Assembly: GCF_028280385.1 (NCBI RefSeq)
Contig: NZ_JANQLX010000003.1
Coordinates: 434,001-498,000 of the forward strand
Reading direction: 5' to 3'
Length of the DNA stretch: 64,000 nucleotides
DNA from: Allomuricauda sp.
GTDB taxonomy: Bacteria; Bacteroidota; Bacteroidia; Flavobacteriales; Flavobacteriaceae
A program made the translations under genes and the position numbers. The notes below the pieces were generated by a model, which was not told where the DNA came from, did not search any database, and saw only the letters and a program-made list of their open reading frames with translations. Within the stretch, counting starts at the first letter, position 1, and every line of letters begins with the position of its first letter. Below, one piece after another: positions 2,195-25,676 of this stretch.

Positions 2195-2746
2195 CTGAAA
2201 CAGAATAACACATATAAGCTCACCTCAAAGGAATACAAAGCGTTGTTTGATACGCTTTATGTATCGCTTTGTTTGTTCTCCAATCGCTATGTTGGAGACT
2301 TGGAACTTGCCAAGGATGTGGTTCAGGATGTGTTTATAAAGGTGTGGGATCAAAAAATTGAATTCAAAGGCCAAAGCGTCATCAGATCATACTTATATAC
2401 GGCGGTCAAAAATAGGTCTTTGGATGTCCTGAAAAGCCGATATCATAAATTGAAAAGTGATTTAACCGTGGAAGAGATACAGAGCATGGAAACTGATTCC
2501 TTTTTTAGTCGGGAGGTTCTTATCGAAGAAACTTCAAGACTTGTGGATGCAGCCGTGAATACCCTTCCTTCCCGGTGCAAGGAGATAATAAAGTTGAGCT
2601 TACTGGGGTACAAGAATGAGGAAATTTCCCAAGAGCTAACGATAACGCTAAATACGGTAAAGGCTCAAAAGAAAATAGCCTATCGCAAACTTCGTTCGCT
2701 TCTAAAGGAGCATTTTGCTTTGATAGTACACATTTTTCTGACGTGA
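2195..2746 (+). CDS. FecI-like ECF RNA polymerase sigma factor
   Basis: Supplied ORF begins at TTG 2243; the open frame with family-like sequence (LKQNNTYKLTSKEYKALFDTLY...) extends back to CTG 2195. Contains AKDVVQDVFIKVW and LPSRCKEIIKLSLLGYKNEEISQELTITLNTVKAQ sigma2/sigma4 regions. Confidence 0.85.
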   Translation: MKQNNTYKLTSKEYKALFDTLYVSLCLFSNRYVGDLELAKDVVQDVFIKVWDQKIEFKGQSVIRSYLYTAVKNRSLDVLKSRYHKLKSDLTVEEIQSMETDSFFSREVLIEETSRLVDAAVNTLPSRCKEIIKLSLLGYKNEEISQELTITLNTVKAQKKIAYRKLRSLLKEHFALIVHIFLT

Positions 2747-2954: not shown

Positions 2955-4148
2955 ATGCCAAGAGATTTAAGCAAAATAATGCAGTTGGCCAAAAGGCTGG
3001 CAAGTAGAATCGTAAAGGGAGAAAAGATTGATGAAATTGACACTTCGGATGTGTTGAATCCAGAAGAAAAGTCTTATGTGGTGGAAAAACTGACAAATCC
3101 TGATGAATGGTTAAAAAGAAACAGTCTTAACAAGAAAGTTAATGCTGATAAAACCAACGAGTGGCGTAAGCTAAAGAAGCACACCGAACCGCAAGGCAAA
3201 CTTCGCTATTTAAGTATTATTGGTAGGGTTGCAGCAATATTTGTGGGAGTTATTGGAATAGCGTACTTCTATTTCAACGGAAATCCTTTCGGTGAGCAAC
3301 CACAATTGGACATTAAGAAAGAATCGATTGTTTTAGAACTAGAGAAAGGTGCTTTTGAAGAATTGTCAGAAACTGAACAAAAACAAGTCCTAGATAGCAA
3401 AGGAAGAGTAGTAGGTGTTCAAGAGGCCAATGTTTTAAACTATTTCACTCCTGAAGAATCAACTGATGAAACTGAAAAAAGGGAGGAAGCTTTGGTCTAC
3501 CACGAGTTGACGGTTCCCTACGGTAAAACATTCCAAGTTGTCCTTTCCGATGGAACCAGGGTCCATCTTAATGCGGGATCTTCGTTGAGATATCCCATAA
3601 AATTCCTAAAAGGAAAAAAAAGGAAAGTATTCTTGCAAGGAGAGGCATTCTTTAATGTTGCCAAAGATGAGGACCATCCTTTTATCGCTAATGCCGAGGC
3701 TTTAAACATCCGAGTATTGGGTACTCAGTTTGTGATAACATCTTATCCTGAAGATCCTCGTATCAATACAGTTTTGGTTGAAGGTTCAGTAGGAATATTC
3801 AAAAACGGCAAGGAATTCAGTGAGGAACACCATACAAAGCTCGAGCCAGGATTCAAGGCCGCTTGGAACAAAACCGATGATGATATTTCCATTGAAAGAG
3901 TAAATGTAGATATCTATACTGCATGGATTGATGGGCGAATTGTTTTGAGCAAAATGCCCTTTAATGATATTCTGAAAAAGCTGGAAAGGAAATATGATGT
4001 TTCCATTGAAAACAACAATAAACTGCTGGGAGAGGAAATTTTTACGGCAAGTTTCGATGTGGAAACCATTGAGCAGGTGCTGACCTCATTCAGCAAAAAT
4101 TATCCCTTTGAATTTAGTGTTGAAAACAATCGGATAATCATTCATTAA
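2955..4148 (+). CDS. FecR family anti-sigma factor
   Basis: LTVPYGKTFQVVLSDGTRVHLNAGSSLRYPIKF and GEAFFNVAKDEDHPFIANAEALNIRVLGTQF; single TM near residue 95; directly downstream of ECF sigma. Confidence 0.93.
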   Translation: MPRDLSKIMQLAKRLASRIVKGEKIDEIDTSDVLNPEEKSYVVEKLTNPDEWLKRNSLNKKVNADKTNEWRKLKKHTEPQGKLRYLSIIGRVAAIFVGVIGIAYFYFNGNPFGEQPQLDIKKESIVLELEKGAFEELSETEQKQVLDSKGRVVGVQEANVLNYFTPEESTDETEKREEALVYHELTVPYGKTFQVVLSDGTRVHLNAGSSLRYPIKFLKGKKRKVFLQGEAFFNVAKDEDHPFIANAEALNIRVLGTQFVITSYPEDPRINTVLVEGSVGIFKNGKEFSEEHHTKLEPGFKAAWNKTDDDISIERVNVDIYTAWIDGRIVLSKMPFNDILKKLERKYDVSIENNNKLLGEEIFTASFDVETIEQVLTSFSKNYPFEFSVENNRIIIH

Positions 4149-4280: not shown

Positions 4281-7200
4281 ATGAAAAACAGCAAAAGGTT
4301 AAAGGGGCTGACCCCTTTACATCTAAAGTTTGACCTGAAAATGAAACTTTCCATTTACCTTTTTATAATAACACTATTTCAGGTTCAGGCAAATTCCTAT
4401 TCTCAAAAGACCAGAATTAGCTTAGAACTCCACGATGTGGGAATAGAGAGGGTCCTTCAGGAAATAGAATCACTTTCAGAGTTTAAGTTCCTGTACAACC
4501 ATAATGAAGTCGATTACCAACAACAAGTTTCCGTAAGTTTTAAAAGGGAACGTATTTCCAAAATTTTGAATGAGCTATTTTCGGAAATACCTATTACCTA
4601 TGAAATTTGGGGAAAGCAAATTATACTGAAGCGGGAATCGCCAAAATCCCATCAGGGCTTTTCAAATGAACCAAAAAAGAAAGCTGTCCCCCAGCAGTCT
4701 ATATCAGGAAAGGTAACCGATAGGCAAGGTAACCCTTTGGCCGGTGCGACTGTTCTAATAAAAGGAACCACAAATGGCGTAATGACGGATTTTGACGGTA
4801 ACTTTGAAATACTTGTTTCATCTTCAGAAGCTACATTGGTCTTTTCCTACGTTGGCTATGAATCCCAAGAAATTGTTATTGGTAATGATGCTACAATAGA
4901 TGTAACACTGCTTCCAAGCTTGGAAGCCTTGGAAGAAGTGGTAGTGGTAGGCTTTGGAACACAAAAGAAAGTCAATCTATCGGGATCTGTTGATGTTGTG
5001 GATATGGAGATATTGGAAGATCGTCCTATAGCCAATGTATCGCAGGGGCTGCAGGGCACGATTGCCAATCTTAATATTACCTTCGCCAATGGCGCGCCTG
5101 GTGGTACGGCCGATATAAATATACGGGGGTTCACATCCTTAAATGGAGGTAGCCCTTTGATTTTGATAGATGGAATCCCGTCATCTTCAGCTGACCTTAC
5201 TAGGCTGAACCCGAATGATATTGCATCTATTTCGGTGTTAAAGGATGCCTCTTCCGCGGCCATTTATGGGGCAAGGGCGGCATTTGGTGTAGTACTGGTC
5301 ACTACCAAGGAAGGAGGAAAAAGTCAGATAACCTATTCCAACGCATTTATTTGGGGAAAACCCACGATTACACCGAACCCTGTTACTGATCCTTATATCT
5401 TTTCACGATTGCTCGATTTGTCGACAAGCAATACGCCATGGAACTTTGTAACGTTTAACGATGATACTTATGCTTGGGCCAGAGAACGTTCAGAAGACCC
5501 TACCGTACCCAATGTTAGGGTAGATCCCTTAAACCCGGACAGGTGGCAATATATGGGAAGCACCAACTGGAACGAATATTTCTTTAATAAATCTGCTTTT
5601 TCACAAAACCACAATGTGGCCATAAGTGGCAAAAGGGATTTTAAAACTGCGGAAGATGGCCTTAGCGAGGGAGGTGTAAGTTATTATTTATCGGGAAACC
5701 ACACAGTAGAAAATGGACTGAATCGATTGGCGGAAGACAAATGGGTGCGTGATGCTATTCGAAGCAAGGTAAAAATAACCCCGAATGACTGGATGGATTT
5801 TGAGAACAATACTTTTCTAACCTTTACGGAGAGAAACCTTCCGACATATGGCATTACCAATGTGTTCAACCTTAGACCTACGGATGTTGTCAAGAATCCG
5901 GACGGTACCTGGGCAAATACCGATGCGGGGCGCGCCGCTGCAAGAATGCTGGACGGGGGCAAATCCGAGGTAGTGCATACTGGTATCCAGACTACCAATA
6001 AATTAAACGTATACCTATTTGACAAAGCTCTCACCCTTACAGGTGAATATACCTATAAAAAAGATGCAAATAGAAGGCATTGGAATGGCACGAAATATAA
6101 AATAGGTTTTGGTCCCAACGATGTAAGGGAACAGGTAAATGAAGATTACGCTTTCGAAGCGCTTAGCGAAAATAAGTATAGTGTATTGAATATTTATGGC
6201 ACATATGCCAAAGAATTTGGGAAGCATAATTTTACAGCTTTGGCAGGTTATAACAAGGAAATAAACGAGTCCGAGTTCTTTTCTGCAAATAGGGATGATC
6301 TTATATCATCCGACCTTCCCAACATTGCCTTGGCCACTGGTGAACAAACCGTCCAATGGGGTTTTTCAGATTGGGCGTTGAACGGTATTTTCGGAAGATT
6401 GAACTATATCTATAATGATCGCTACATTTTAGAGTTGAATGGTCGCTATGATGGATCTTCCCGGTTTCCAAAAAATGACAGGTATGGTTTCTTTCCCTCA
6501 GTTTCGTTGGCCTGGATAGCCAGTGAAGATTTTGGGGAGTCGATCACGGGTGTCATGAACCATTTAAAGTTCAGGGCATCAAGAGGGTCTTTGGGGAACC
6601 AACTCGTTGACGATTATGGTTATATAAACTCATTGCCAACAGGACAATCAACATACCTGATAGATGGGGATTATCCTAAAGCGGTATTCGCTCCAGAGCT
6701 TGGTGTAGACCCAAACAATTATACATGGGAAAAAGTGGTGACGACCAATTTTGGGGTCGACCTTGGCTTTTTTGATAGTGCCCTTACCATTTCGTTCGAT
6801 AATTATGTAAGGAATACTATGGGGATGCTGGTACCAAGTCAAGAATTGCCCGGAGTTTTGGGTACAGATCCGCCAAGCCAGAATTCAGCAGATTTAAGCA
6901 CCAAAGGATGGGAATTTACCCTAGGGTACAAACATAATTCCCACATTGGGGGAAGCCCTTTTGAACTAGGGGCCTCATTCATATTGTCGGATAATGAGAC
7001 CACAATTACCAGATATGAAAATGATGGCCAGTTATTTTCACAATGGAGAGAAGGCGCAAAGGTTGGCGAAATATGGGGACTTGAAAGCGATGGCTTATTT
7101 GCGAACCAGGAAGAAATAGACAACCTGGATCAAACTGCACTTATTCCTTGGGGAGCCTTAACCATTGTACCTGGATGGCCCAAATACGTAGATCAAGATG

Positions 7201-7850
7201 GTGATGGTAAAATTTTATTGGGGAATTCTGCAAACGACCCCAAAGACCTAAAGCTGATCGGGAACGGAACTCCCAGATATCAAGTAGGGTTCAACCTAAA
7301 TCTTGCTTGGAAAGGATTTGATTTAAGTGGATTTATACAGGGCATTGGAAAAAGAGACTATTATCCTTTACGTTATCTTTTTTGGGGCCCCTACCAGCAA
7401 CCTTATGCAAATACGTACCCGCATCTGTTTGATTTTTATAGAGCTGAGGGAGACAGTGATGCCTTGCTGGAACAACATTCCCAATCATATATTGATGCTG
7501 GGTTGGCAGATGCCAATACTGATTCCGAATATCCGGTGTTGCAAAGTTGGTTGGCGGACGCCAACTATCGGGATGGTAATGGAAACCCTGCTGGACTTGC
7601 CATTCCACAGACCAAATACATGCAAAGTGCAGCATATTTAAGACTGAAGAACATTACGTTGGGATATTCCCTGCCAAAAAATTGGCTGGAAAAAATGCAC
7701 ATCGATCAACTTCGTTTTTTTGTCACCGGAGAAAATATTTACGAATGGTCCTCAATCAAAAGATTTGTTGATCCAGAGGCCTTGGAAAACGCAGGGTTTT
7801 CGTATCCGTTCCATAGAAAACTATCGGCAGGAATGAACATTACTTTTTAA
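4281..7850 (+). CDS. SusC/RagA-like TonB-dependent outer membrane receptor with N-terminal STN signalling domain
   Basis: STN-like segment (ISLELHDVGIERVLQEIESLSEFKFLYN), carboxypeptidase-like domain (ISGKVTDRQGNPLAGATVLIKGT), VVVGFGTQKKVNLSGSVDV TonB box/plug, beta-barrel C-terminus. Confidence 0.95.
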   Translation: MKNSKRLKGLTPLHLKFDLKMKLSIYLFIITLFQVQANSYSQKTRISLELHDVGIERVLQEIESLSEFKFLYNHNEVDYQQQVSVSFKRERISKILNELFSEIPITYEIWGKQIILKRESPKSHQGFSNEPKKKAVPQQSISGKVTDRQGNPLAGATVLIKGTTNGVMTDFDGNFEILVSSSEATLVFSYVGYESQEIVIGNDATIDVTLLPSLEALEEVVVVGFGTQKKVNLSGSVDVVDMEILEDRPIANVSQGLQGTIANLNITFANGAPGGTADINIRGFTSLNGGSPLILIDGIPSSSADLTRLNPNDIASISVLKDASSAAIYGARAAFGVVLVTTKEGGKSQITYSNAFIWGKPTITPNPVTDPYIFSRLLDLSTSNTPWNFVTFNDDTYAWARERSEDPTVPNVRVDPLNPDRWQYMGSTNWNEYFFNKSAFSQNHNVAISGKRDFKTAEDGLSEGGVSYYLSGNHTVENGLNRLAEDKWVRDAIRSKVKITPNDWMDFENNTFLTFTERNLPTYGITNVFNLRPTDVVKNPDGTWANTDAGRAAARMLDGGKSEVVHTGIQTTNKLNVYLFDKALTLTGEYTYKKDANRRHWNGTKYKIGFGPNDVREQVNEDYAFEALSENKYSVLNIYGTYAKEFGKHNFTALAGYNKEINESEFFSANRDDLISSDLPNIALATGEQTVQWGFSDWALNGIFGRLNYIYNDRYILELNGRYDGSSRFPKNDRYGFFPSVSLAWIASEDFGESITGVMNHLKFRASRGSLGNQLVDDYGYINSLPTGQSTYLIDGDYPKAVFAPELGVDPNNYTWEKVVTTNFGVDLGFFDSALTISFDNYVRNTMGMLVPSQELPGVLGTDPPSQNSADLSTKGWEFTLGYKHNSHIGGSPFELGASFILSDNETTITRYENDGQLFSQWREGAKVGEIWGLESDGLFANQEEIDNLDQTALIPWGALTIVPGWPKYVDQDGDGKILLGNSANDPKDLKLIGNGTPRYQVGFNLNLAWKGFDLSGFIQGIGKRDYYPLRYLFWGPYQQPYANTYPHLFDFYRAEGDSDALLEQHSQSYIDAGLADANTDSEYPVLQSWLADANYRDGNGNPAGLAIPQTKYMQSAAYLRLKNITLGYSLPKNWLEKMHIDQLRFFVTGENIYEWSSIKRFVDPEALENAGFSYPFHRKLSAGMNITF

Positions 7851-7877: not shown

Positions 7878-9647
7878 ATGAGAAATATATATGCAATATT
7901 GATTTTAGCGCTGGCCATTGTAGGGTGTTCTGATGATTTTTTGGATACAAGCCCGGAATCCTCATTGGCAAAGGAAAACTTTTTTAATTCTGAATCCGAT
8001 CTACAGCTTTATATTAATGGATTACATTCCTTGCCAGGTGTAGGATTGTATTTGGGCGACCAAGGAACAGATGACATGGCAACAACTGGCGCTGTAGAGA
8101 TCAAGAATATGATGATTGGAAATCCCAGTGCTGAAAATATCAGTGCCGGTTGGACATGGACACGTCTTAGGAACATTAATTTTTTTCTGGAAAATTTTGA
8201 AAAGGCAGATGAGGATGAAAGTACAAAAAATCATTTTGAAGGGGTGGCCAGATACTACAGGGCTGAGTTTTACTTCAACAAGGTAAAACGGTTTTCAGAC
8301 GTGCCATGGTATTCAACCACATTAAGTCCTGGCGATGAAGAATTGTTTAAACCTAGGGACCAAAGAACTTTGGTTGTGGATAGCCTAATGAACGACATAC
8401 AATTTGCCTCCCAAAACATTCGTGAAGACGTGGCATATGGAAACATAAACAGATGGATGGCATTGTTTTTACAGGCTCGTATTGCACTGTACGAGGGTAC
8501 TTTTAGAAAATACCATCCTGAGCTTGGCCTAGAGGGGACAGCCAACACCTATTTGGAAATAGCTCATAATGCCGCAAAAGAATTAATGGATTCTGGAAAC
8601 TTCTCGCTGCACAATACCGGTAATCCAGAAAGCGATTATGGTACACTTTTTCAATCTGAGGATCTCTCTGGCATATCCGAAGCCATGTTGGTAAACGTGT
8701 ATGATGTGGATAAAAATAAGAACAGCGGTATTTGGCACGTCTTTGGCGATTATGAACAAAGCCCTTCCAAGGCATTGATCAATTCTTATTTGATGACGGA
8801 TGGTTCTCGTTTTACAGATCAACCAAACGCCGGAGCCATGACATACGTGGAAGAATTCCAAAATCGTGACCCTCGATTGTCACAAACCTTTGTTCCTCCT
8901 GGATATATATTGGCTGGAAGTGATTCTCCTTACGTTCAAGTGTTAAACAAAAACTTTACTGGATATCATCAACAAAAAGGATATAACAATACTACGGAAG
9001 ATGCAGGAGTCGATATTGCGGTATACAGGTATGCCGAAATGCTGTTGACCTTTGCGGAGGCAAAAGCCGAACTTGGATCCTTGACCCAAGCGGATCTTGA
9101 TATGTCGATTAACCTATTGCGGGCTAGAGCAGGCCTACCCAATATGGATTTGGCAACGGCCAATGCCGATATAGATCCCATTATGGAAGATGATTTTCCC
9201 AATGTTTCGGGATCGAATAGAGGAGTGATCTATGAAATAAGGAGGGAAAGAAGAGTAGAGTTTGCAGCGGAGTCTTTCCGGTTGAATGATGTTTCAAGAT
9301 GGAACATCGGAAAAATCTTGGAGAGAATTCCCGAAGGCATGCATTTTCCAGGGTTGGGTAAGTACGATATGACAGGTGATGGAGTTGAGGACATCAGCAT
9401 TATAGCCAGCACTGAAGATGTGCCATCCCCCAAAGAACAAAATGCATTGGGTGTGGAACTTATTTACTACAAGGCCGGATTTTTTGGCGATGTAGCCGCA
9501 AGTTTATTCTTGACCAACGGAACCTCCGGGAATATGGTTACTTCAACAACAACACAACGATTCGAAGAACCAAAGTTTTATTACAGGCCCATTCCTGCCC
9601 ACCAAGTCTCCTTAAACCCTCAGTTAAAACAAATAATGGGGTGGTAA
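7878..9647 (+). CDS. SusD/RagB-family nutrient-binding outer membrane lipoprotein
   Basis: Lipobox (LAIVGCSDDFLDTSPES), VDIAVYRYAEMLLTFAEAKAELG and IYEIRRERRVEFAAESFRLNDVSRW motifs; adjacent to SusC. Confidence 0.95.
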   Translation: MRNIYAILILALAIVGCSDDFLDTSPESSLAKENFFNSESDLQLYINGLHSLPGVGLYLGDQGTDDMATTGAVEIKNMMIGNPSAENISAGWTWTRLRNINFFLENFEKADEDESTKNHFEGVARYYRAEFYFNKVKRFSDVPWYSTTLSPGDEELFKPRDQRTLVVDSLMNDIQFASQNIREDVAYGNINRWMALFLQARIALYEGTFRKYHPELGLEGTANTYLEIAHNAAKELMDSGNFSLHNTGNPESDYGTLFQSEDLSGISEAMLVNVYDVDKNKNSGIWHVFGDYEQSPSKALINSYLMTDGSRFTDQPNAGAMTYVEEFQNRDPRLSQTFVPPGYILAGSDSPYVQVLNKNFTGYHQQKGYNNTTEDAGVDIAVYRYAEMLLTFAEAKAELGSLTQADLDMSINLLRARAGLPNMDLATANADIDPIMEDDFPNVSGSNRGVIYEIRRERRVEFAAESFRLNDVSRWNIGKILERIPEGMHFPGLGKYDMTGDGVEDISIIASTEDVPSPKEQNALGVELIYYKAGFFGDVAASLFLTNGTSGNMVTSTTTQRFEEPKFYYRPIPAHQVSLNPQLKQIMGW

Positions 9648-10585: not shown

Positions 10586-10599
10586 CAAAAGTGATTAAA

Positions 10600-11691
10600 A
10601 TGAAATATTGGATACTTTCTTTTTCGACCATATTCCTTACTATATTAATGGGTTGTAGTTCTCGTACAAACGAACAGGGAACAACCAGTAAGAAACAACC
10701 GGAAAGCCAGGTTGCAAAAATCGCATTTAAGGGCTCCTTAAAGGTGCTAACGTTGAATGCATGGCATGAGGGAACTAAGGTTAGTGATGGTTTCAATGCC
10801 ATAGCCAAAGTCATTCATCGTTCAGAAGCTGACATCGTAATGCTCTGCGAAATCACAAACCATAATAATGTTGTATTCAGTGATCGGATAGTGAAAGAGC
10901 TAATGGATAGGGGTGAGAAATACTATTCCTTCAATTCTGGGAAATCCCCTATTATTTTATCAAAGTTTCCCATTGTATCAACACCGGCTTTAAACACTTC
11001 CTACCTTACAAAATGTAGGGTGCAAATTGATGAGAACCTGCAGATAGCCATCTATTCGGCCCATTTAGATTATACCCATTATGCATGTTATTTGCCCCGT
11101 GGTTATGATGGTATTACATGGAAGAAGTTGCCTGAACCTATTTTGGATACCAAAATAATATTGGAACAGAACAAAGCATCACAACGCGATGAGGCCATAG
11201 CACTTTTTGTGAACAATGCCCAAGAGGAAACCGAGAACGGAAACATTGTTTTATTGGGAGGGGATTTTAATGAACCTTCCCATTTGGATTGGGGAGAAGC
11301 TTCCAAAGACCTGTTCGACCACAACGGAACTGTGGTGCCCTGGCAAAACAGTAAAACCCTTGCGGAAAAAGGTTTTTTGGATACCTATAGAACCAAATAT
11401 CCCGATCCGGTTACGCACCCTGGGTTTACCTGGCTGGCGAACAACACCCACGTACCCTTGGACGAGTTGGTATGGACCCCCGAGGCGGACGACAGGGATC
11501 GAATAGATTTTATATACTATCGGCCACATGAAAGACTTGCACTGGAAGATGCAGTTGTTGTAGGGCCGGTCGGTTGCGTGGTCAATGGAGAGCGAGTAGT
11601 CATCAACCCTGGTCAGGACAAGTTTTTGGAAATGAATGGAATATGGCCTTCGGATCATAAAGGGGTCCTAGCAACTTTTAGGATTGACTAA
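10600..11691 (+). CDS. Endonuclease/exonuclease/phosphatase (EEP) family lipoprotein
   Basis: Lipobox MGCSS, KVLTLNAWHEG, LLGGDFNEPSH, IWPSDHKGVLATF EEP motifs; ATG at 10600 preferred to GTG at 10591. Confidence 0.85.
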   Translation: MKYWILSFSTIFLTILMGCSSRTNEQGTTSKKQPESQVAKIAFKGSLKVLTLNAWHEGTKVSDGFNAIAKVIHRSEADIVMLCEITNHNNVVFSDRIVKELMDRGEKYYSFNSGKSPIILSKFPIVSTPALNTSYLTKCRVQIDENLQIAIYSAHLDYTHYACYLPRGYDGITWKKLPEPILDTKIILEQNKASQRDEAIALFVNNAQEETENGNIVLLGGDFNEPSHLDWGEASKDLFDHNGTVVPWQNSKTLAEKGFLDTYRTKYPDPVTHPGFTWLANNTHVPLDELVWTPEADDRDRIDFIYYRPHERLALEDAVVVGPVGCVVNGERVVINPGQDKFLEMNGIWPSDHKGVLATFRID

Positions 11692-11718
11692 AGAATAAAA
11701 AAACGGCCCGATAACAAA

Positions 11719-12546
11719 ATGATGAATATGTTCAAACTCTTAAAAACCATTTATTGCGGAATACTCATTTTAACAATCATTTTGGCAATGGGTTGTAGCA
11801 TTAAGCAGAATCCGGGGAAAATTTCAAATACCTCGATTGTTTTACAGGGCCCGGCTTGGGCTTCTGTATGGCAGCAAAAGTCTGGGGAATACAAGGCTTT
11901 GTGTTTTCAGGCTTATAACTTGGCGCGTACGCGTTTGGATGCTCTATTGCAAAAGAAATACACGCAACCGTTGGCTATCGTCACGGATATAGATGAAACA
12001 GTATTGGATAATAGCCCCTATCAGGTGCATCAGGCCTTGAATAATGAAGAATATAGTGATGCCTCTTGGATGGAATGGACGGCAAGGATAGACTGCGATA
12101 CGATTCCGGGGGCATTATCTTTTCTTCGATATGCCAAAAGCAGGGGAGTGGATATCTTCTACATTACTAATCGACTTGAAGCTGAGCGGGAGGCAACTTT
12201 AAAAGATTTAGAACGATGGGGATTTCCCGATGCTACTGATAGTCACCTCACTATGAAAACAACCACCTCGGGCAAGGAACCCCGAAGGGCAAAAGTAGCC
12301 ATTACCCATGAAATACTTTTATTACTGGGAGATAACCTGAGCGACTTCAGCGAGATTTATGATAAAAAAACAATTGATAAACGTAACGACTTGGTTATTG
12401 ACAACTCAACCACATTTGGTAACAGGTTTATTGTATTACCCAATGCCATGTATGGTGATTGGGACGGGGCCATATACAAATACCAATATGATCTTCCTGC
12501 AAAAGAGAAGGAAAGAATAATTGTGGAGTCGCTAAAAAGATATTAA
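11719..12546 (+). CDS. 5'-nucleotidase, lipoprotein e(P4) family (HAD acid phosphatase)
   Basis: Lipobox AMGCS; IVTDIDETVLDNSPY, FYITNR, LLLGDNLSDF HAD motifs. Confidence 0.88.
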   Translation: MMNMFKLLKTIYCGILILTIILAMGCSIKQNPGKISNTSIVLQGPAWASVWQQKSGEYKALCFQAYNLARTRLDALLQKKYTQPLAIVTDIDETVLDNSPYQVHQALNNEEYSDASWMEWTARIDCDTIPGALSFLRYAKSRGVDIFYITNRLEAEREATLKDLERWGFPDATDSHLTMKTTTSGKEPRRAKVAITHEILLLLGDNLSDFSEIYDKKTIDKRNDLVIDNSTTFGNRFIVLPNAMYGDWDGAIYKYQYDLPAKEKERIIVESLKRY

Positions 12547-12866: not shown

Positions 12867-14600
12867 TTGAAATATTTGGGAATTGATATCGGGGGAACAT
12901 GGATTAAAGCCACGATGGTAGACGAAACCTATTTTTCTCTTTTAGAGGAGGAAAAAAAAACGGATATCCATATAAAGAAGGTTAAAAGCCCTTTGCACAA
13001 ATGCGCAGCGGTAAAGGAACTAATCGAAGGTCTAAGAAAGCTAATTTTAAAGTTTGGGGCAATTCATGAACACATAGGCGGAGTAGGCATTTCTACCGCT
13101 GGAATAGTTGACTACAATGGCTCCAAAGTCGTAAAGGCAGCCCCCCATTTAAGTGTTTTGAAGACAGATAAGTGGAAAACTGAAATTGAAAAAGAACTAG
13201 GGTGCGTTGTTACCTTAATAAATGATGCTGATGCAACTACCATAGGGATTTCTGAATTAGGGCTGCTTAAAGGGAATCAAACAGTAGGTATTATGCCCAT
13301 CGGTACAGGGCTTGGTTTTTCTATTTGGAGGAATGGGAGACGATGGAGGCCTGGAAAGGTATTAAGCATACTTGGAAGTGTTAGAACCTCTAGCGGGGTC
13401 TATGATAATATTGCCAGCGCATCCATATTGGCAGCGAAAAACCCCGAAAATGACCTAATCAAAGTTTTGACCCAAGAATCATGTCAAAAAGCCATTGATG
13501 CTTACATGGATAACTTGGTAATGATTATTACTACCGCATTCACACTATATAATCTGGACAAGCTGATGATTTGTGGAGGTTTGGCCGATGCGGTTGCTGC
13601 CTGTAGTTATCCATTGGAAGATAAACTTAATTCAAAGCTGACTATAAGTCAAAGTGTATTGGGTAAAGTAATGAGTGCCAATGTTTTAAAGGAAGGGAAT
13701 AAACTACAACTTATTGGAGCTGTGTCATTGGCCAGGGGAGAATCCATTGCTCGGAGCAATCAAGTGGCGAAACAATATCGGTCGATTCAGACTGAAATTC
13801 CATATCAGCATAATATCCAGTTGCAGCATAGTACTACCCAAGAAATTGTAAGGTTATTGTGGAAAGCGGAGCAGGAGGCAGGAGAATTGTTGAAAAATAG
13901 TCTCCCTGCTATGGAAAAAGTCATTGAAGAAATTTCGGAAAGAATATTAAAAGGAGGTAGACTGATTTATGTCGGAGCTGGCACCAGTGGTAGAATTGCG
14001 GCAATGGATGCCGTTGAAATACCGTGTACTTATGGTTTTCCAGAAGATAGGATTCTGAGCTTGGTTTCAGGAGGTATAGCTGATGCGGCTATTGAAATTG
14101 AATCTAATTACGAAGAGGATGCCAGTGCTGTTCCTGAAATGTTGTTGATGAACATTACGGAAAACGACTCTGTTGTTGGAATTTCCGCTAGTGGTTCGGC
14201 ATACTATGTGCAGTCGGCATTGGCTTTTGCCAAAGAACGTGGAGCTTATTCTGTAATGATTCAAAGCGAATTGCCTAAAAACAAATTGCCGTTTTGTGAT
14301 GAGGTGGTTCCATTGAATTCGGGATATGAGGTGGTAGCAGGATCCACGCGAATGAAAGCCGGTACCGCCACAAAAAAGGTGTTGAACTTTTTGTCCTCGA
14401 CAATTATGATAAAACTTGGAAAAGTTTCTGGGCCTTATATGGTAGACGTTGCTTGTATCAATGCCAAACTGGTGGGTCGGGCAAAAAAAATTCTATGCGA
14501 CCTATATAATATCGAAGATGGGGAAGCTGCACAAAGACTTCATGATGCCGACATGGATCTTGGGAAGGTCATCCGAATTTTAAATGAGCGGGGATTATGA
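12867..14600 (+). CDS. Fusion protein: N-terminal ROK/ASKHA-type sugar kinase + C-terminal N-acetylmuramic acid 6-phosphate etherase (MurQ-like SIS domain)
   Basis: N-term YLGIDIGGTWIKA, INDADATTIG, PIGTGLGFSIWRNG; C-term LQHSTTQEIVRLLWKAEQEA, GGRLIYVGAGTSGRIAAMDAVEIPCTYG, VVAGSTRMKAGTATKKVLNFLSS; one uninterrupted frame, TTG start. Confidence 0.88.
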   Translation: MKYLGIDIGGTWIKATMVDETYFSLLEEEKKTDIHIKKVKSPLHKCAAVKELIEGLRKLILKFGAIHEHIGGVGISTAGIVDYNGSKVVKAAPHLSVLKTDKWKTEIEKELGCVVTLINDADATTIGISELGLLKGNQTVGIMPIGTGLGFSIWRNGRRWRPGKVLSILGSVRTSSGVYDNIASASILAAKNPENDLIKVLTQESCQKAIDAYMDNLVMIITTAFTLYNLDKLMICGGLADAVAACSYPLEDKLNSKLTISQSVLGKVMSANVLKEGNKLQLIGAVSLARGESIARSNQVAKQYRSIQTEIPYQHNIQLQHSTTQEIVRLLWKAEQEAGELLKNSLPAMEKVIEEISERILKGGRLIYVGAGTSGRIAAMDAVEIPCTYGFPEDRILSLVSGGIADAAIEIESNYEEDASAVPEMLLMNITENDSVVGISASGSAYYVQSALAFAKERGAYSVMIQSELPKNKLPFCDEVVPLNSGYEVVAGSTRMKAGTATKKVLNFLSSTIMIKLGKVSGPYMVDVACINAKLVGRAKKILCDLYNIEDGEAAQRLHDADMDLGKVIRILNERGL

Positions 14601-16381
14601 TACTGAAACCAATTGATTGGATAATCATAGGGGCGTTTTTTGTTTTTTCACTGATAATTGGTTTTATGGTTTCCAAGCAGGCAGGTAAAAATACCTCCGA
14701 GTTTTTTTTGTCTGGGCGCTCAATGCCTTGGTGGCTTTTGGGTATTTCAATGGTGGCCACCACATTTTCCGCCGACACTCCCAATTTGGTTGCCGACATA
14801 GTCAGAAAGAACGGTGTTTCTGGAAACTGGATTTGGTGGTCGTTCCTATTAACAGGTATGCTTACGGTCTTTTTGTATGCGAAACTATGGAGGCGTTCAA
14901 AAACATTAACAGATCTTGAGTTTTATGAAATAAGATATAGTGGGAAAGAAGCAGCCTTCCTAAGGGGCTTTAGGGCCTTGTACCTTGGTTTTTTTTTCAA
15001 TATTATAATAATGGCCACCGTTTGTCTTGCCGCCATTAAGTTAGGGAGTATTTTATTAAATATAAGTCCCGTACAGACCATGTTGATTGCATCGGCAGTA
15101 ACTGTTGTCTATAGTACACTTGGCGGATTAAAAGGAGTTCTGATTACCGATTTTTTTCAGTTTTTTATAGCCATGGCTGGTTCAATTTGGGCCACTGTTG
15201 TAATCATAGATCTTCCAGAAGTTGGCGGTTTGCAAAATTTGATCAATCATGATAACGTCAAGGGAAAATTGAATATTCTTCCAGATTTTTCAAATACGGA
15301 CCTGCTCCTTACGGTATTTATTATTCCAATTGCGGTGCAATGGTGGAGTGTCTGGTATCCTGGAGCAGAACCAGGGGGTGGCGGATATATTGCACAAAGG
15401 ATGTTATCGGCAAAAAACGAAAAGAATGCTGTTTGGGCAACTTTATTGTTTAACCTTGCCCATTATGCCATACGCCCGTGGCCGTGGATTCTCATCGCGT
15501 TGGCTTCTTTGGTCGTTTTTCCAAATGTATCGGATTTGGCACAAGCTTTTCCTAATATTGAAAATAGAATCATACAGGATGACATATCTTATTCCGCAAT
15601 GATCACCTTTCTTCCTTCGGGGCTTTTGGGCCTGGTAGTGGCATCTTTGATTGCTGCTTTCATGTCGACGATATCCACTCACTTGAACTGGGGATCTTCA
15701 TATATGGTAAATGATTTCTACCACAGGTTCATTAACCCTAACGCTTCTTCAAAGGAATTGGTCTTTATGGCTCGACTCTCAACAGTTATACTCATGGTAT
15801 TGGCGGCGATACTGGCCTTGTTTTTAAGCAATGCCTTACAAGCGTTTAACGTTCTGCTCCAAATTGGTGCGGGGACGGGTCTTCTTTTTATCTTAAGATG
15901 GTTTTGGTACCGTATAAATGCTTGGAGCGAGATCACCGCCATGATTGTGTCTTTTCTTCTTGCAGTTTATTTTCAATTCATTCACCCACAAATGCATTTC
16001 GGCGAACTTTCAACTTCGCTGCAACTTATACTTGGGGTGGTAATAACAACCATTGCATGGGTAAGCGTTACCTTATTAACTAAACCATCTGATGAAAATA
16101 CATTAAAATCATTTTACGGATTAACAAAGCCCGGAGGACCAGGTTGGAGAAAAATCGTTGATAAGATAAAGGACTCTTCCGACACTGATATTGATGAAAA
16201 ATGGGATGTTCCAATTGCCATACTTTGCATGGTTACAGGGAGTTTTATAGTCTTTGCGACACTATTTTCGATAGGATATTTTATTTATGGAAATCTAGTT
16301 CTGGGAGTACTACTTCTTTTGCTTGCTATTTTAAGTTCTGTGATACTCTATAGATTATGGGGAAAGCTTAAAATTAATTAG
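14597..16381 (+). CDS. Sodium:solute symporter family transporter (candidate MurNAc/amino-sugar importer)
   Basis: SSS fold (ADTPNLVADIVRKNGVSGNW, AAFMSTISTHLNWGSSYMVNDFY), ~13 TM; start overlaps upstream stop (ATGA). Confidence 0.9.
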   Translation: MILKPIDWIIIGAFFVFSLIIGFMVSKQAGKNTSEFFLSGRSMPWWLLGISMVATTFSADTPNLVADIVRKNGVSGNWIWWSFLLTGMLTVFLYAKLWRRSKTLTDLEFYEIRYSGKEAAFLRGFRALYLGFFFNIIIMATVCLAAIKLGSILLNISPVQTMLIASAVTVVYSTLGGLKGVLITDFFQFFIAMAGSIWATVVIIDLPEVGGLQNLINHDNVKGKLNILPDFSNTDLLLTVFIIPIAVQWWSVWYPGAEPGGGGYIAQRMLSAKNEKNAVWATLLFNLAHYAIRPWPWILIALASLVVFPNVSDLAQAFPNIENRIIQDDISYSAMITFLPSGLLGLVVASLIAAFMSTISTHLNWGSSYMVNDFYHRFINPNASSKELVFMARLSTVILMVLAAILALFLSNALQAFNVLLQIGAGTGLLFILRWFWYRINAWSEITAMIVSFLLAVYFQFIHPQMHFGELSTSLQLILGVVITTIAWVSVTLLTKPSDENTLKSFYGLTKPGGPGWRKIVDKIKDSSDTDIDEKWDVPIAILCMVTGSFIVFATLFSIGYFIYGNLVLGVLLLLLAILSSVILYRLWGKLKIN

Positions 16382-16880: not shown

Positions 16881-18479
16881 ATGAAACCCGTTTTTAAAAA
16901 GTTTGTCCTTATTCTGCTCCTGATATTTAATTCAGGATTACATGTCCTTGGGCAACTCCCAGTTATTCCCTATCCATCAGAGGTTGAACATAAAAGTGAG
17001 AACTTTATAGCAAGCTCGATAAACTGCTTCACTTCAATTGAATGTATGAATGAGGCCTTGTTCTTGGTTGAAAAGTTACATAATGAGTTTGGTGTCGAAT
17101 CCCAAATTTCAACCAAAAAAAATACGTCCAACCTGAGATTAACTATTGAAAAAGATAAATTGTTAGAGCTCGGTGAAGAAGGATATGAACTGCAAATCTT
17201 TCGGGATATTATTGAGATCAAAGCACCAACAAGTACCGGTATTTTTTATGGGATACAATCACTTTTACAACTTATTCAGAAAAATAGTGAGAATTCATTC
17301 ATGGTATCAGGGGTAAAAATATTGGATAAACCTCGCTTTGCCTGGAGGGCATTTTTGTTGGATGAGGCCCGTCGGTTCAAAGGGATGGACATGGTTAAAG
17401 AACTGCTCGACGAAATGGCATTTCTAAAGATGAACACCTTTCATTGGCATCTTACCGATGATCAAGGCTGGCGAATTCAAATTAAGCAATACCCTAAACT
17501 AATTACGGTGGGTTCCAAGAGAAATGGATCCAAGGTAAGCCCGGGAGATAAAAGTGATGGTATGCCACATGAAGGGTATTATACCCAGGAGGAAATCAAG
17601 GAGATTGTTGATTATGCGGCCTCAAGGCATATAAAAATTATCCCTGAAATAGAAATGCCGGGACATGCCAGTGCTGCTATTGCTTCATATCCTTGGTTGG
17701 GAGCAAAAGGTGAACCTTTGGAGATTCCCGAGGCTTTGTTAGCAGTCTACCCGGACATCTACAATGTGGCAGACCCTGAGGTTCGGACCTTTCTTAAGAA
17801 TGTGGTGGATGAAGTTATTGCCTTGTTTCCATCGGGCATAGTCCATATAGGAGGCGATGAAGTAAAATATGGTCAATGGAAGGATTCAGGTCAAGCTAAT
17901 CAATTTATTAAGGAACATAATCTTAAGTCTCCAGCTGATCTGCATCTTTGGTTTACAAATAACATGTCTTCCTACATCAGTAAAAAAGGGTATCGTATGA
18001 TTGGTTGGAACGATATAACTGGAAACAAAATACATGACTATATAGATTCCCAGGATGTGCATTTAGGAAGAAAACTGGACCAGCAGACTATTGTACAGTT
18101 TTGGAAAGGAGATCCAAAGCTTATTGAGGAGACCGCTAAAAAAGGATATGACATAGTAAATTCCTATCATGTTTACACCTATTTAGACTACAGCCATGAA
18201 AGTATTGGTTTAGAGAAAGCCTACAGCTTTGAACCTGTTCCCGAAGAGCTTCCAATTTCTTATCATTCGAAAATTCTGGGATTGGGATGCCAGATGTGGA
18301 GCCAGGCTATTCCAACCCGTGAGAGTATGCACCTACAGATCTTTCCTAGAATTGCCGCCTATGCTGAAGTAGGATGGACCCAAAAAAAGAATAAGGATTA
18401 TACCCGGTTTAAGAGCTCCTTGTTATTACTTAAAAAAATATGGAAAAGACATGGAATCAATTATTACGGATTTGAGTAA
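16881..18479 (+). CDS. Beta-N-acetylhexosaminidase, GH20
   Basis: FAWRAFLLDEARRF, MNTFHWHLTDDQGWRI, IIPEIEMPGHASAAI, VHIGGDEV (catalytic D-E), signal peptide. Confidence 0.95.
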   Translation: MKPVFKKFVLILLLIFNSGLHVLGQLPVIPYPSEVEHKSENFIASSINCFTSIECMNEALFLVEKLHNEFGVESQISTKKNTSNLRLTIEKDKLLELGEEGYELQIFRDIIEIKAPTSTGIFYGIQSLLQLIQKNSENSFMVSGVKILDKPRFAWRAFLLDEARRFKGMDMVKELLDEMAFLKMNTFHWHLTDDQGWRIQIKQYPKLITVGSKRNGSKVSPGDKSDGMPHEGYYTQEEIKEIVDYAASRHIKIIPEIEMPGHASAAIASYPWLGAKGEPLEIPEALLAVYPDIYNVADPEVRTFLKNVVDEVIALFPSGIVHIGGDEVKYGQWKDSGQANQFIKEHNLKSPADLHLWFTNNMSSYISKKGYRMIGWNDITGNKIHDYIDSQDVHLGRKLDQQTIVQFWKGDPKLIEETAKKGYDIVNSYHVYTYLDYSHESIGLEKAYSFEPVPEELPISYHSKILGLGCQMWSQAIPTRESMHLQIFPRIAAYAEVGWTQKKNKDYTRFKSSLLLLKKIWKRHGINYYGFE

Positions 18480-23296: not shown

Positions 23297-24490
23297 ATGA
23301 AATCAATATGCGCTTTAATGGTGTTCCACATCATTTGTTTTGTCTCATGTTCGAAGAGTGACGATTCAATTATTCTGTTAGGTCAGTCCGATAAGCCTGG
23401 GGCTCTGGTATCCTATCAAAAAACAGGAAGGCTAACCGTTGAAAACATCATTAAAAATGGTTCAAATGTGGGGGACATTTCCCCATACGCCAATCATAAT
23501 GTAATCCTCTATAGAGTAGTCTACAACACCAATCATTTAGGGCAACTTATAGAGGTTTCGGGTTTAGTAATGATTCCAGAAAACGTTCAAAATCATCTTG
23601 AAATTGTTCAACATCACCATGGTACCATTATTCCAGGGGACAACGACGAAGTGCCATCAGCATACACTGGGGGCTATACAGACAGTAATGCTGAATCTAG
23701 TTTCATTGGTGCGGTAATGGCATCCAACGGTTATGTGGTTTCGCTGCCTGATTATGTCGGCTATGGCGCTACCCGTCATCTGGAACATCCATATACAGTG
23801 CACCACGAGCTTGCAGGGGTCTCCATAGACATGTTGAGGGCCACCAAAAAATTGATGAATGAACTATCATTGGATTTTTCGGGCAATGTTTTCTTGACAG
23901 GTTGGAGTGAAGGCGGTGGTGCCGCCTTGGCCACCCATAAATATTTACAGTTGGTCGATGTTGATGAGTTTACAATAAAAGGAAGTTCCCTTTTGGCCGG
24001 ACCTTATGATTATTACACCTTTTTTAAGCAAATAATTGCAAATGGTACTTTGAAGAATGAGAACTTATCCATTTATAGCTGGGCCACATATTCCATAAAT
24101 CTGTATTCGCAAGAACTGAAACGCAGCAGGAACGACATTTGGGCCTATACGGTATCCAATCAGTTGGAAGCCCTGGATGTACCTTCTGATAGGCCTATCG
24201 ATATCTTTCAAACTGATTTTATTAATGGCATTGTAAATGAAACCGATACTAAATTCACTATGGCCCTAAAGGCAAATAGTCTTTTGAATGGATGGAAGCC
24301 TGCAGGGCATTTATTCCTTCATTCTGGTACCGAGGACAGAATCGTGCCCCATTATAACAGTACCAACGCCCACAAACACTTTAGCCAATTAAATGGGAGT
24401 TCAACACTATATGAATACCAAGGCGGTGACCACTATACACCATTGTACAAATATGTGACCACAACCATAAACGATTTTAATGCCTTATAA
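23297..24490 (+). CDS. Secreted alpha/beta-hydrolase (lipase-like) lipoprotein
   Basis: Lipobox CFVSCSKSDD; GWSEGGGAAL nucleophile elbow (G-x-S-x-G), PDYVGYGATRH; SGTEDRIVPHYNS. Confidence 0.8.
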   Translation: MKSICALMVFHIICFVSCSKSDDSIILLGQSDKPGALVSYQKTGRLTVENIIKNGSNVGDISPYANHNVILYRVVYNTNHLGQLIEVSGLVMIPENVQNHLEIVQHHHGTIIPGDNDEVPSAYTGGYTDSNAESSFIGAVMASNGYVVSLPDYVGYGATRHLEHPYTVHHELAGVSIDMLRATKKLMNELSLDFSGNVFLTGWSEGGGAALATHKYLQLVDVDEFTIKGSSLLAGPYDYYTFFKQIIANGTLKNENLSIYSWATYSINLYSQELKRSRNDIWAYTVSNQLEALDVPSDRPIDIFQTDFINGIVNETDTKFTMALKANSLLNGWKPAGHLFLHSGTEDRIVPHYNSTNAHKHFSQLNGSSTLYEYQGGDHYTPLYKYVTTTINDFNAL

Positions 24491-25676
24491 TATGAAGCGG
24501 GAAGAATTTATAAAAATGTGTGGATTATTGGGAATTTCATTGCCCTTTCAATCTGTAATGGCAGCATGCACTTCGGGCGATGATGAAAATACAGCGAATA
24601 TCAGTACTAAAGTAATTATCATCGGAGCTGGAGCGGCCGGAATGACAGCAGGATATTTGTTGGCGCAACAAGGTATCGATTTTGAAATATTGGAAGCTAC
24701 CTCTGCTCCTGGGGGGCGTATGAGGCATAACACCTCATTTACGGACTTTCCCATTTCGCTAGGTGGGGAATGGTTGCATGTTGAACGGGGGATCCTTGAT
24801 GAAATCGTGAACGATAGTTCCATGGCCATAGATTTGGAAACTATTGCATATGATGCCAATGTGGATTATGGAATTGATGCCAGCACGGGCGAACAGTTAA
24901 CATTGGGGGAAGTTGGCTTCACCATTGATCAAAAATTTGTGGGTTCAAGTTGGTTCGGTTTTTTTGAAGAATACATCTATCCTTCGGTAAAATCAAGAAT
25001 TAAGTACAATAATCCAATAACCACTATTGATTATTCGAAGGACCGCGTGGTTGTAACTAATAAAAATGGAACTCAATTCACAGGCGACAAAATAATTGTT
25101 ACTATTCCCGTAAAGATACTTCAAAACGGAGGGATTGATTTCATTCCGGCCCTGCCACAGTCCAAGCAAGAGGCAATCAATAGTGCACGAATTTGGAATG
25201 GTTGTAAAGCATTTATTGAGTTTTCAGAAAAGTTTTATCCTGCCTTTACGGCATACGAAACTTTTCCTGAAACTGCAGGTCAAAAATTGTATTATGATGC
25301 CGCCTATGGACAAAACACCACTAAAAATGTTTTAGGGCTTTTCGCAGTGGGTATTGAGGCCGATAGCTATAATCAAATTTCTGACGACAATGCGTTACGC
25401 GATTTTATGTTGGAAGAATTGGATATCGTTTTCGGTCCAAATCTAGCCTCATCGAACTACATAAAACACACCTTTCAAAATTGGAATGCCGAACCGTATG
25501 CCAATGGAGCTTATATCGTAGACCATGAAAACTGGAGGTTGGTCAGGACTCTTGGGGAATCGGTAAACAACAAGCTGTTTTTTGCCGGGGATGGCTATAC
25601 CACTGGAGAGGATTGGAGCAGTGTACATGCCGCTGGTCGTTCCGCCCTAAGGGCAGTACAAGAAATTATGGGCTGA
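24480..25676 (+). CDS. FAD-dependent amine oxidase (flavin monoamine oxidase family)
   Basis: VIIIGAGAAGMTAGYLLAQQGIDFEILEATSAPGGRM; C-terminal LFFAGDGYTTGEDWSSVHAAGRSALRA. Confidence 0.9.
   Translation: MPYNMKREEFIKMCGLLGISLPFQSVMAACTSGDDENTANISTKVIIIGAGAAGMTAGYLLAQQGIDFEILEATSAPGGRMRHNTSFTDFPISLGGEWLHVERGILDEIVNDSSMAIDLETIAYDANVDYGIDASTGEQLTLGEVGFTIDQKFVGSSWFGFFEEYIYPSVKSRIKYNNPITTIDYSKDRVVVTNKNGTQFTGDKIIVTIPVKILQNGGIDFIPALPQSKQEAINSARIWNGCKAFIEFSEKFYPAFTAYETFPETAGQKLYYDAAYGQNTTKNVLGLFAVGIEADSYNQISDDNALRDFMLEELDIVFGPNLASSNYIKHTFQNWNAEPYANGAYIVDHENWRLVRTLGESVNNKLFFAGDGYTTGEDWSSVHAAGRSALRAVQEIMG

What the first reader, a model, noticed from the sequence alone, without database searches (positions are those of the whole stretch)
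12867..14600. Single ORF fusing a ROK-type sugar kinase to a MurQ etherase
One uninterrupted 577-aa frame has a sugar-kinase ATPase domain (DIGGT, NDAD, PIGTG) followed by a full MurQ-like SIS domain. The MurQ half keeps VGAGTSGR and Glu residues at the expected catalytic positions (DAVEIPCT; IESNYEEDA). MurNAc catabolism needs kinase then etherase; in Tannerella forsythia these are separate proteins (MurK, MurQ). The zinc-binding CxCGxxGCxE motif of many ROK kinases is not visible, so the kinase half may be a divergent specificity group. A bifunctional MurNAc kinase/etherase is my inference.
Basis: partly seen in the sequence, partly recalled or inferred. Interest (0 to 1): 0.75.

Follow-up and report, generated by a model that had tools for sequence, protein, structure and literature searches.

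The report
Sugar kinase fused to MurQ-like etherase
One bacterial gene joins a sugar-phosphorylating enzyme to an enzyme resembling the one that strips lactate from the cell-wall sugar MurNAc; the fusion is real, has a single origin in Bacteroidota, and sits in glycan-degradation gene clusters, but its exact substrate is unproven.

Summary
12867-14600 (+) is one 577-aa frame: a ROK-type kinase half (Pfam ROK 7e-19) and a complete MurQ-like SIS half (NCBIfam 1.4e-72). It is not a frameshift artefact: 11 other Bacteroidota genomes carry the same single-frame architecture (10 intact, 1 decayed). The MurQ halves form one 100%-supported clade outside 62 ordinary MurQs.

It is not simply a housekeeping MurNAc enzyme. 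The same genome has a stand-alone MurQ and a separate MurK-like (BadF) kinase. The fusion is accessory: absent from 36 same-genus genomes and embedded in a SusC/SusD locus. Its relatives sit beside N-acetylhexosaminidases (GH20 or GH89; 5 of 12 loci within 1.5 kb, against 1 of 59 ordinary MurQ loci) or beside an orphan protein family (window 18637-21207) seen so far only in fusion-bearing genomes.

Most likely it is a bifunctional kinase/etherase for MurNAc or a related 3-O-substituted N-acetylhexosamine. Kinase motifs and the first MurQ glutamate are kept; the second is kept only if a local two-residue shift is accepted, and several residues invariant in MurQ are changed. The zinc motif and the ROK substrate glutamate are lost. 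MurNAc as the substrate is unproven.

The parts
12867..14600 (+). ROK kinase - MurQ-like etherase fusion, 577 aa
12867..13760 (+). kinase half (residues 1-298): DIGGTW, catalytic Asp in NDAD (13221-13232), GTGLGF, NGRRW, ICGGLA; ROK substrate Glu replaced by Ile168, zinc His by Ser171, zinc Cys motif absent
13770..14597 (+). MurQ-like SIS half (residues 302-577): GAGTSGR 13974-13994, Glu384 (= E. coli Glu83) 14016-14018, EED motif with probable second Glu417 14115-14117
14597..16381 (+). sodium:solute symporter, overlaps the fusion stop by 4 bp (ATGA); 77% identical to the symporter beside the Flaviramulus fusion
16881..18479 (+). GH20 beta-N-acetylhexosaminidase, 65% identical to one next to an orphan-family copy in the Flaviramulus genome
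18637..21207 (+). 856-aa orphan protein with an N-terminal hydrophobic segment; homologues found only in fusion-bearing genomes, adjacent to the fusion in two of them
4281..7850 (+). SusC-type outer-membrane transporter of the same locus
7878..9647 (+). SusD-like lipoprotein of the same locus
2955..4148 (+). homologue of a protein beside SusC in the Flaviramulus locus (41.8%); FecR-type anti-sigma factor by sequence reading
2243..2746 (+). homologue of small regulators in the other loci (about 30%); ECF sigma factor by sequence reading
24480..25676 (+). flavin amine oxidase, 56% identical to one near the Flaviramulus fusion; membership of the system uncertain

Best explanation
The gene encodes a bifunctional cytoplasmic enzyme. 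The ROK-type half phosphorylates an imported N-acetylhexosamine, probably at O6. The MurQ-like half then removes the substituent on C3 by beta-elimination and water addition, giving GlcNAc-6-phosphate, plus D-lactate if the sugar is MurNAc. It works inside a glycan-use locus in which SusC/SusD import oligosaccharides, a GH20 enzyme (GH89 in other loci) and possibly the orphan protein trim them, and the sodium symporter carries the monomer inward. Shown: the fusion, its conservation, the domain identities and the neighbourhood. Inferred: both activities, their order, the division of labour with the neighbours, and MurNAc or a close 3-O-substituted analogue as substrate.
For: Both domains are detected by sequence and by fold (ROK 3vgk/5nck; MurQ 4lzj at 35% identity). 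Eleven more genomes carry the same architecture, and the MurQ halves form one clade. The 11 intact copies keep NDA[D/E], GTGLG, the Glu83 equivalent and the EEDAS motif. The one decayed copy (L142) has changed the TSGR and EED letters, as expected if they matter. Profile-profile alignment places E417-D418 on MurQ Glu114-Asp115. The ROK substrate Glu is replaced by Ile/Leu; in T. forsythia MurK, loss of the bulky residue at this place makes room for the lactyl group (PMC10465942). The symporter gene overlaps the fusion gene by 4 bp, and in T. forsythia murT (sodium symporter superfamily), murK and murQ form an operon (PMC5790795). A NagB-type gene elsewhere in the genome can take the product on after deacetylation.
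Against: The genome already has MurQ and a MurK-like kinase. Residues invariant in 63 MurQs are changed (P86C, T144A, P145Y/K, Q201T), and the TIGR00274 equivalog cut-off is not reached. Asn precedes the catalytic Asp, whereas MurK has Thr there and PMC10465942 argues that Asn would strain the lactyl group. GH89 acts on alpha-linked GlcNAc, a linkage not found in peptidoglycan (own knowledge). The AlphaFold model is unreliable in the etherase active site.
Confidence: 0.6

Rival explanations
1. The kinase half makes GlcNAc-6-phosphate from GlcNAc released by GH20/GH89, and the SIS half dehydrates it or otherwise processes it, as NagS of Streptomyces does, rather than cleaving a lactyl ether.
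For: GH20 and GH89 release plain GlcNAc and their genes are neighbours. NagS is a SIS enzyme related to MurQ that eliminates the C3 oxygen of GlcNAc-6P (PMC12680351).
Against: NagS needs His53 and Arg64; by motif spacing the fusion has Thr373 and Glu384 there, as MurQ does. The paper limits true NagS to Streptomycetaceae.
Confidence: 0.15
2. The SIS half is a sensor: it binds a phosphosugar and regulates the fused kinase, as the glucokinase regulatory protein regulates glucokinase, and has no lyase activity.
For: The half matches GKRP SIS models in Pfam (3e-10), and glucokinase is the partner of GKRP.
Against: The match to MurQ is far stronger (1.4e-72). The catalytic Glu and EED letters are kept in all 11 intact copies.
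Confidence: 0.1
3. The SIS half eliminates a different C3 substituent, for example a glycosyl group or a non-lactate ether, from a phosphorylated HexNAc derivative of a non-peptidoglycan polysaccharide.
For: Changed pocket residues next to a kept elimination apparatus; GH89 in several loci; separate housekeeping MurQ.
Against: No direct evidence; no polysaccharide identified.
Confidence: 0.1
4. Sequencing or assembly artefact joining two genes.
For: None found (no call supports it).
Against: Same junction in 11 more genomes.
Confidence: 0.01

Closest known systems
Tannerella forsythia MurT-MurK-MurQ operon (PMC5790795, PMC10465942)
   Same: Sodium-type symporter, MurNAc kinase and MurQ etherase encoded together in a member of Bacteroidota; same proposed reaction order.
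   Different: Separate proteins; MurK is a BadF-type kinase of another family; described as an ortholog of E. coli MurQ. The fusion has a ROK kinase and a divergent MurQ half.
[quoted passage not shown] PDB 4lzj, 1nri, 4s12)
   Same: Full-length match, GAGTSGR, Glu83, GSTRMKAGTA.
   Different: Below the equivalog cut-off, separate clade, invariant pocket residues changed, two-residue shift at the Glu114 loop, fused kinase.
ROK kinases (S. griseus glucokinase 3vgk, F. nucleatum NanK 5nck, NagK 7p7w)
   Same: ASKHA fold, DIGGT, catalytic Asp, GTG loop.
   Different: No zinc site, substrate Glu replaced by Ile/Leu, invariant NGR[RK]W stretch, fused SIS half.
NagS GlcNAc-6P dehydratase (PMC12680351)
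   Same: MurQ-related SIS enzyme eliminating at C3 of an amino-sugar phosphate.
   Different: His53/Arg64 of NagS not present at the equivalent spacing.
Thermomicrobium roseum murQ plus BadF kinase gene pair (NC_011961)
   Same: Etherase and kinase genes side by side, overlapping by 11 bp.
   Different: Two proteins, opposite order, non-homologous kinase.

Membership tests
MurQ etherase | Full-length MurQ subfamily match (NF003915) | tested here: met
   244 bits against cut-off 168, residues 305-569
MurQ etherase | Equivalog-level match (TIGR00274) | tested here: not met
   202 bits against cut-off 302
MurQ etherase | Catalytic Glu83 | tested here: met
   Glu384, invariant in all 12 fusions
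MurQ etherase | Catalytic Glu114 | tested here: inconclusive
   E417 in gapped profile alignment, Tyr/Phe in ungapped alignment; the letter is kept in all 11 intact fusions
MurQ etherase | Other residues invariant in 63 MurQs (P86, T144, P145, Q201) | tested here: not met
   C, A, Y/K, T in the first three fusions aligned
MurQ etherase | MurNAc-6P to GlcNAc-6P plus D-lactate | not testable with these tools
   needs enzyme assay
ROK kinase | Pfam ROK above gathering score | tested here: met
   68.9 against 22.9 bits
ROK kinase | Phosphate loops and catalytic Asp | tested here: met
   DIGG[TS]W, NDA[D/E], GTGLG in all 12
ROK kinase | Zinc-binding CxCGxxGCxE motif | tested here: not met
   absent in all 12; not universal in ROK proteins (own knowledge)
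MurK (BadF-type MurNAc kinase) | BadF/MurK homology | tested here: not met
   No PF01869 match in the fusion; a separate MurK-like protein of the genome matches PDB 8oqw at 2e-45
NagS dehydratase | His53 and Arg64 | tested here: inconclusive
   Thr373 and Glu384 by motif spacing (numbering from PMC12680351); no NagS sequence was aligned

The most novel reading that the evidence does not exclude
A kinase-lyase fusion that activates a HexNAc by phosphorylation and then removes a C3 substituent other than D-lactate by beta-elimination, giving a non-hydrolytic route for cleaving 3-O-substituted amino sugars from a non-peptidoglycan polysaccharide, served by GH89/GH20 and a new orphan family of likely glycan-active enzyme.
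Probability: 0.12. Interest if true: 0.8.

Novelty: new variant of a known kind. Interest (0 to 1): 0.5.

Why it matters
If the MurNAc reading is right, the kinase and etherase steps of muramic acid use are done by one protein with a kinase family (ROK) not known for MurNAc, a second independent solution to MurK. If not, it marks an unrecognised lactyl-ether or 3-O-substituted amino sugar in polysaccharides eaten by Bacteroidota. Either way the locus points to an orphan protein family tied to it.

Tried and rejected
Frameshift artefact: rejected by 11 other genomes. Search of plasmids with the fusion: only ordinary MurQ, no place covering 80% of the query. IMG/VR viral contigs: nothing. AlphaFold of the orphan protein without alignment: pLDDT 38, not used. 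Orphan protein against Pfam and PDB profiles: nothing. A Paludibacteraceae hit of the GTDB scan (L110) proved to be an unrelated ATPase-type protein. Paper searches for a described kinase-MurQ fusion found none in the open library, which lacks most subscription papers. Promoter and terminator scans were not above chance. G+C of the locus gave no clear transfer signal.

Full report
What is there. Window 12867-14600 (+) is one frame of 577 aa with a TTG start that lines up with the ATG of the two closest homologues. Residues 3-161 match Pfam ROK (68.9 bits; cut-off 22.9), and residues 305-569 match the MurQ subfamily NF003915 (244 bits; cut-off 168) but not the equivalog TIGR00274 (202; cut-off 302). 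The best solved relatives by sequence are MurQ of Haemophilus influenzae, HI0754 (1nri, 4lzj; about 3e-41). Foldseek of the model gives ROK kinases first and MurQ 4lzj at 35% local identity.

How common it is. In the own genome the whole fusion occurs once. A stand-alone MurQ lies on another contig (38% identity to the etherase half) next to a DeoR regulator and a NagB/PIG-L protein. A BadF-type kinase, closest among solved proteins to 1zbs and to the MurNAc kinase K1058 of Tannerella forsythia, lies elsewhere. None of 36 same-genus genomes has the fusion. The kinase half found one more fusion in 400 genomes of the family, none in 396 drawn across the phylum, one more in 395 of the class, and then 10 of 120 genomes of that last genome's family (one of these, G1219, only as fragments on small contigs). 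A scan of GTDB contigs named two carriers: a Marinilabiliaceae MAG (L096) and an uncultured Flaviramulus (L097, the same contig as). With the window this gives 12 loci with a single-frame fusion, of which one (L142) is decayed. A truncated kinase start next to a GH89 gene and a homologous AraC regulator remains in a further genome (L093).

Evolution. The MurQ halves of the 11 intact fusions form one clade with 100% SH-aLRT support against 62 ordinary MurQs, so one fusion event suffices. The window protein is 70% identical to that of the Marinilabiliaceae MAG but only 54% to that of Flaviramulus, a member of its own family. With the absence from the genus this suggests lateral transfer (inference).

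Active sites. In the kinase, DIGG[TS]W, the Asp of NDA[D/E] and GTGLG are kept in all 12 copies, the zinc motif is missing in all, and the ROK substrate Glu/His stretch (GEIGH) is replaced by [I/L]-[L/F/M]-G-[S/C]. In T. forsythia MurK the small residues at this place make room for the lactyl ether, while a Thr replaces the Asn before the catalytic Asp (PMC10465942); the fusion keeps Asn, so this evidence cuts both ways. In the etherase half Glu384 sits on E. coli Glu83 in every alignment. For Glu114 the result depends on method: MAFFT with a Bacteroidota MurQ and HHalign with 63 MurQs place E417-D418 on Glu114-Asp115 with a compensated two-residue shift, while ungapped HMMER and larger MAFFT alignments put Tyr/Phe there. 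E416, E417 and D418 are invariant in the 11 intact copies. Residues P86, T144, P145 and Q201, invariant in 63 MurQs, are changed. That E. coli Glu83 and Glu114 are catalytic is from my knowledge of Hadi et al. 2008; the paper was not available here.

Neighbourhood. The fusion stop overlaps the start of a sodium:solute symporter (14597-16381). Then follow GH20 (16881-18479) and an 856-aa orphan protein (18637-21207). SusC, SusD and two regulator genes lie upstream. The symporter is 77% identical to that beside the Flaviramulus fusion. The GH20 and orphan protein recur together beside SusCD in the same Flaviramulus genome (65% and 65-66%). The orphan family is directly upstream of the fusion in two genomes of family f65 (L120, L138); it occurs in 3 of 4 fusion genomes searched for it and in none of 216 other genomes of the class. 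Other fusion loci carry two GH20 genes (L140, L141) or GH89 (L096, L144, L145). Within 1.5 kb a GH20 or GH89 gene lies beside 5 of 12 fusions and 1 of 59 ordinary MurQ genes (Fisher p = 0.0003; the rows are related, so this is not a strict probability).

Reading. The most economical explanation is a pathway-specific bifunctional enzyme: an imported N-acetylhexosamine is phosphorylated by the ROK half and its C3 substituent is eliminated by the MurQ-like half. MurNAc is the obvious candidate, by analogy with the T. forsythia murT-murK-murQ operon (PMC5790795). The separate MurQ and kinase, the altered pocket and the GH89 neighbours leave room for another 3-O-substituted amino sugar, for NagS-like dehydration of GlcNAc-6P (PMC12680351), or for a GKRP-like sensor. 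I put about 0.6 on the bifunctional kinase/etherase reading and about 0.4 on MurNAc itself as the main substrate.

Novelty. Both domains are known; the combination, the ROK kinase in this role and the link with hexosaminidase loci were not found described in the open papers searched. InterPro architectures could not be searched, so an annotated but unpublished record of the fusion is possible. I rate it a new variant of a known kind.

Noticed in passing
18637-21207; L120:9923-12055; L128:3-2108; L129:260-2419; L138:6816-9029: Orphan protein family with no Pfam, NCBIfam or PDB match, 38-66% identical to the window copy, with many invariant Trp/Asp/Glu/His; possibly an undescribed glycan-active enzyme tied to the fusion.
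   Followed up: partly
19100-19460: 162-bp tandem repeat (about 2 copies) that inserts a repeated stretch of roughly 130 residues into the orphan protein; homologues lack it.
   Followed up: partly
24480-25676: Flavin amine oxidase 56% identical to one near the Flaviramulus fusion, though genes of other kinds lie between.
   Followed up: partly
L142:9128-10768: Decayed fusion copy: GTIGR for GTSGR, EKD for EED, part of the SIS half missing.
   Followed up: partly
L143:1056-3143: Methanol methyltransferase MtaB and a B12-binding corrinoid protein immediately upstream of a fusion gene.
   Followed up: no
L115:6479-13714: Sphingopyxis plasmid cluster with TonB receptor, sodium symporter, divergent MurQ, FAD-linked oxidase, a SIS protein and nagA: looks like a mobile MurNAc-use cluster.
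   Followed up: no
10591-12546: Endonuclease/exonuclease/phosphatase-family protein (GTG start) and an e(P4)-type acid phosphatase lie between SusD and the fusion but are not seen in the other fusion loci.
   Followed up: partly
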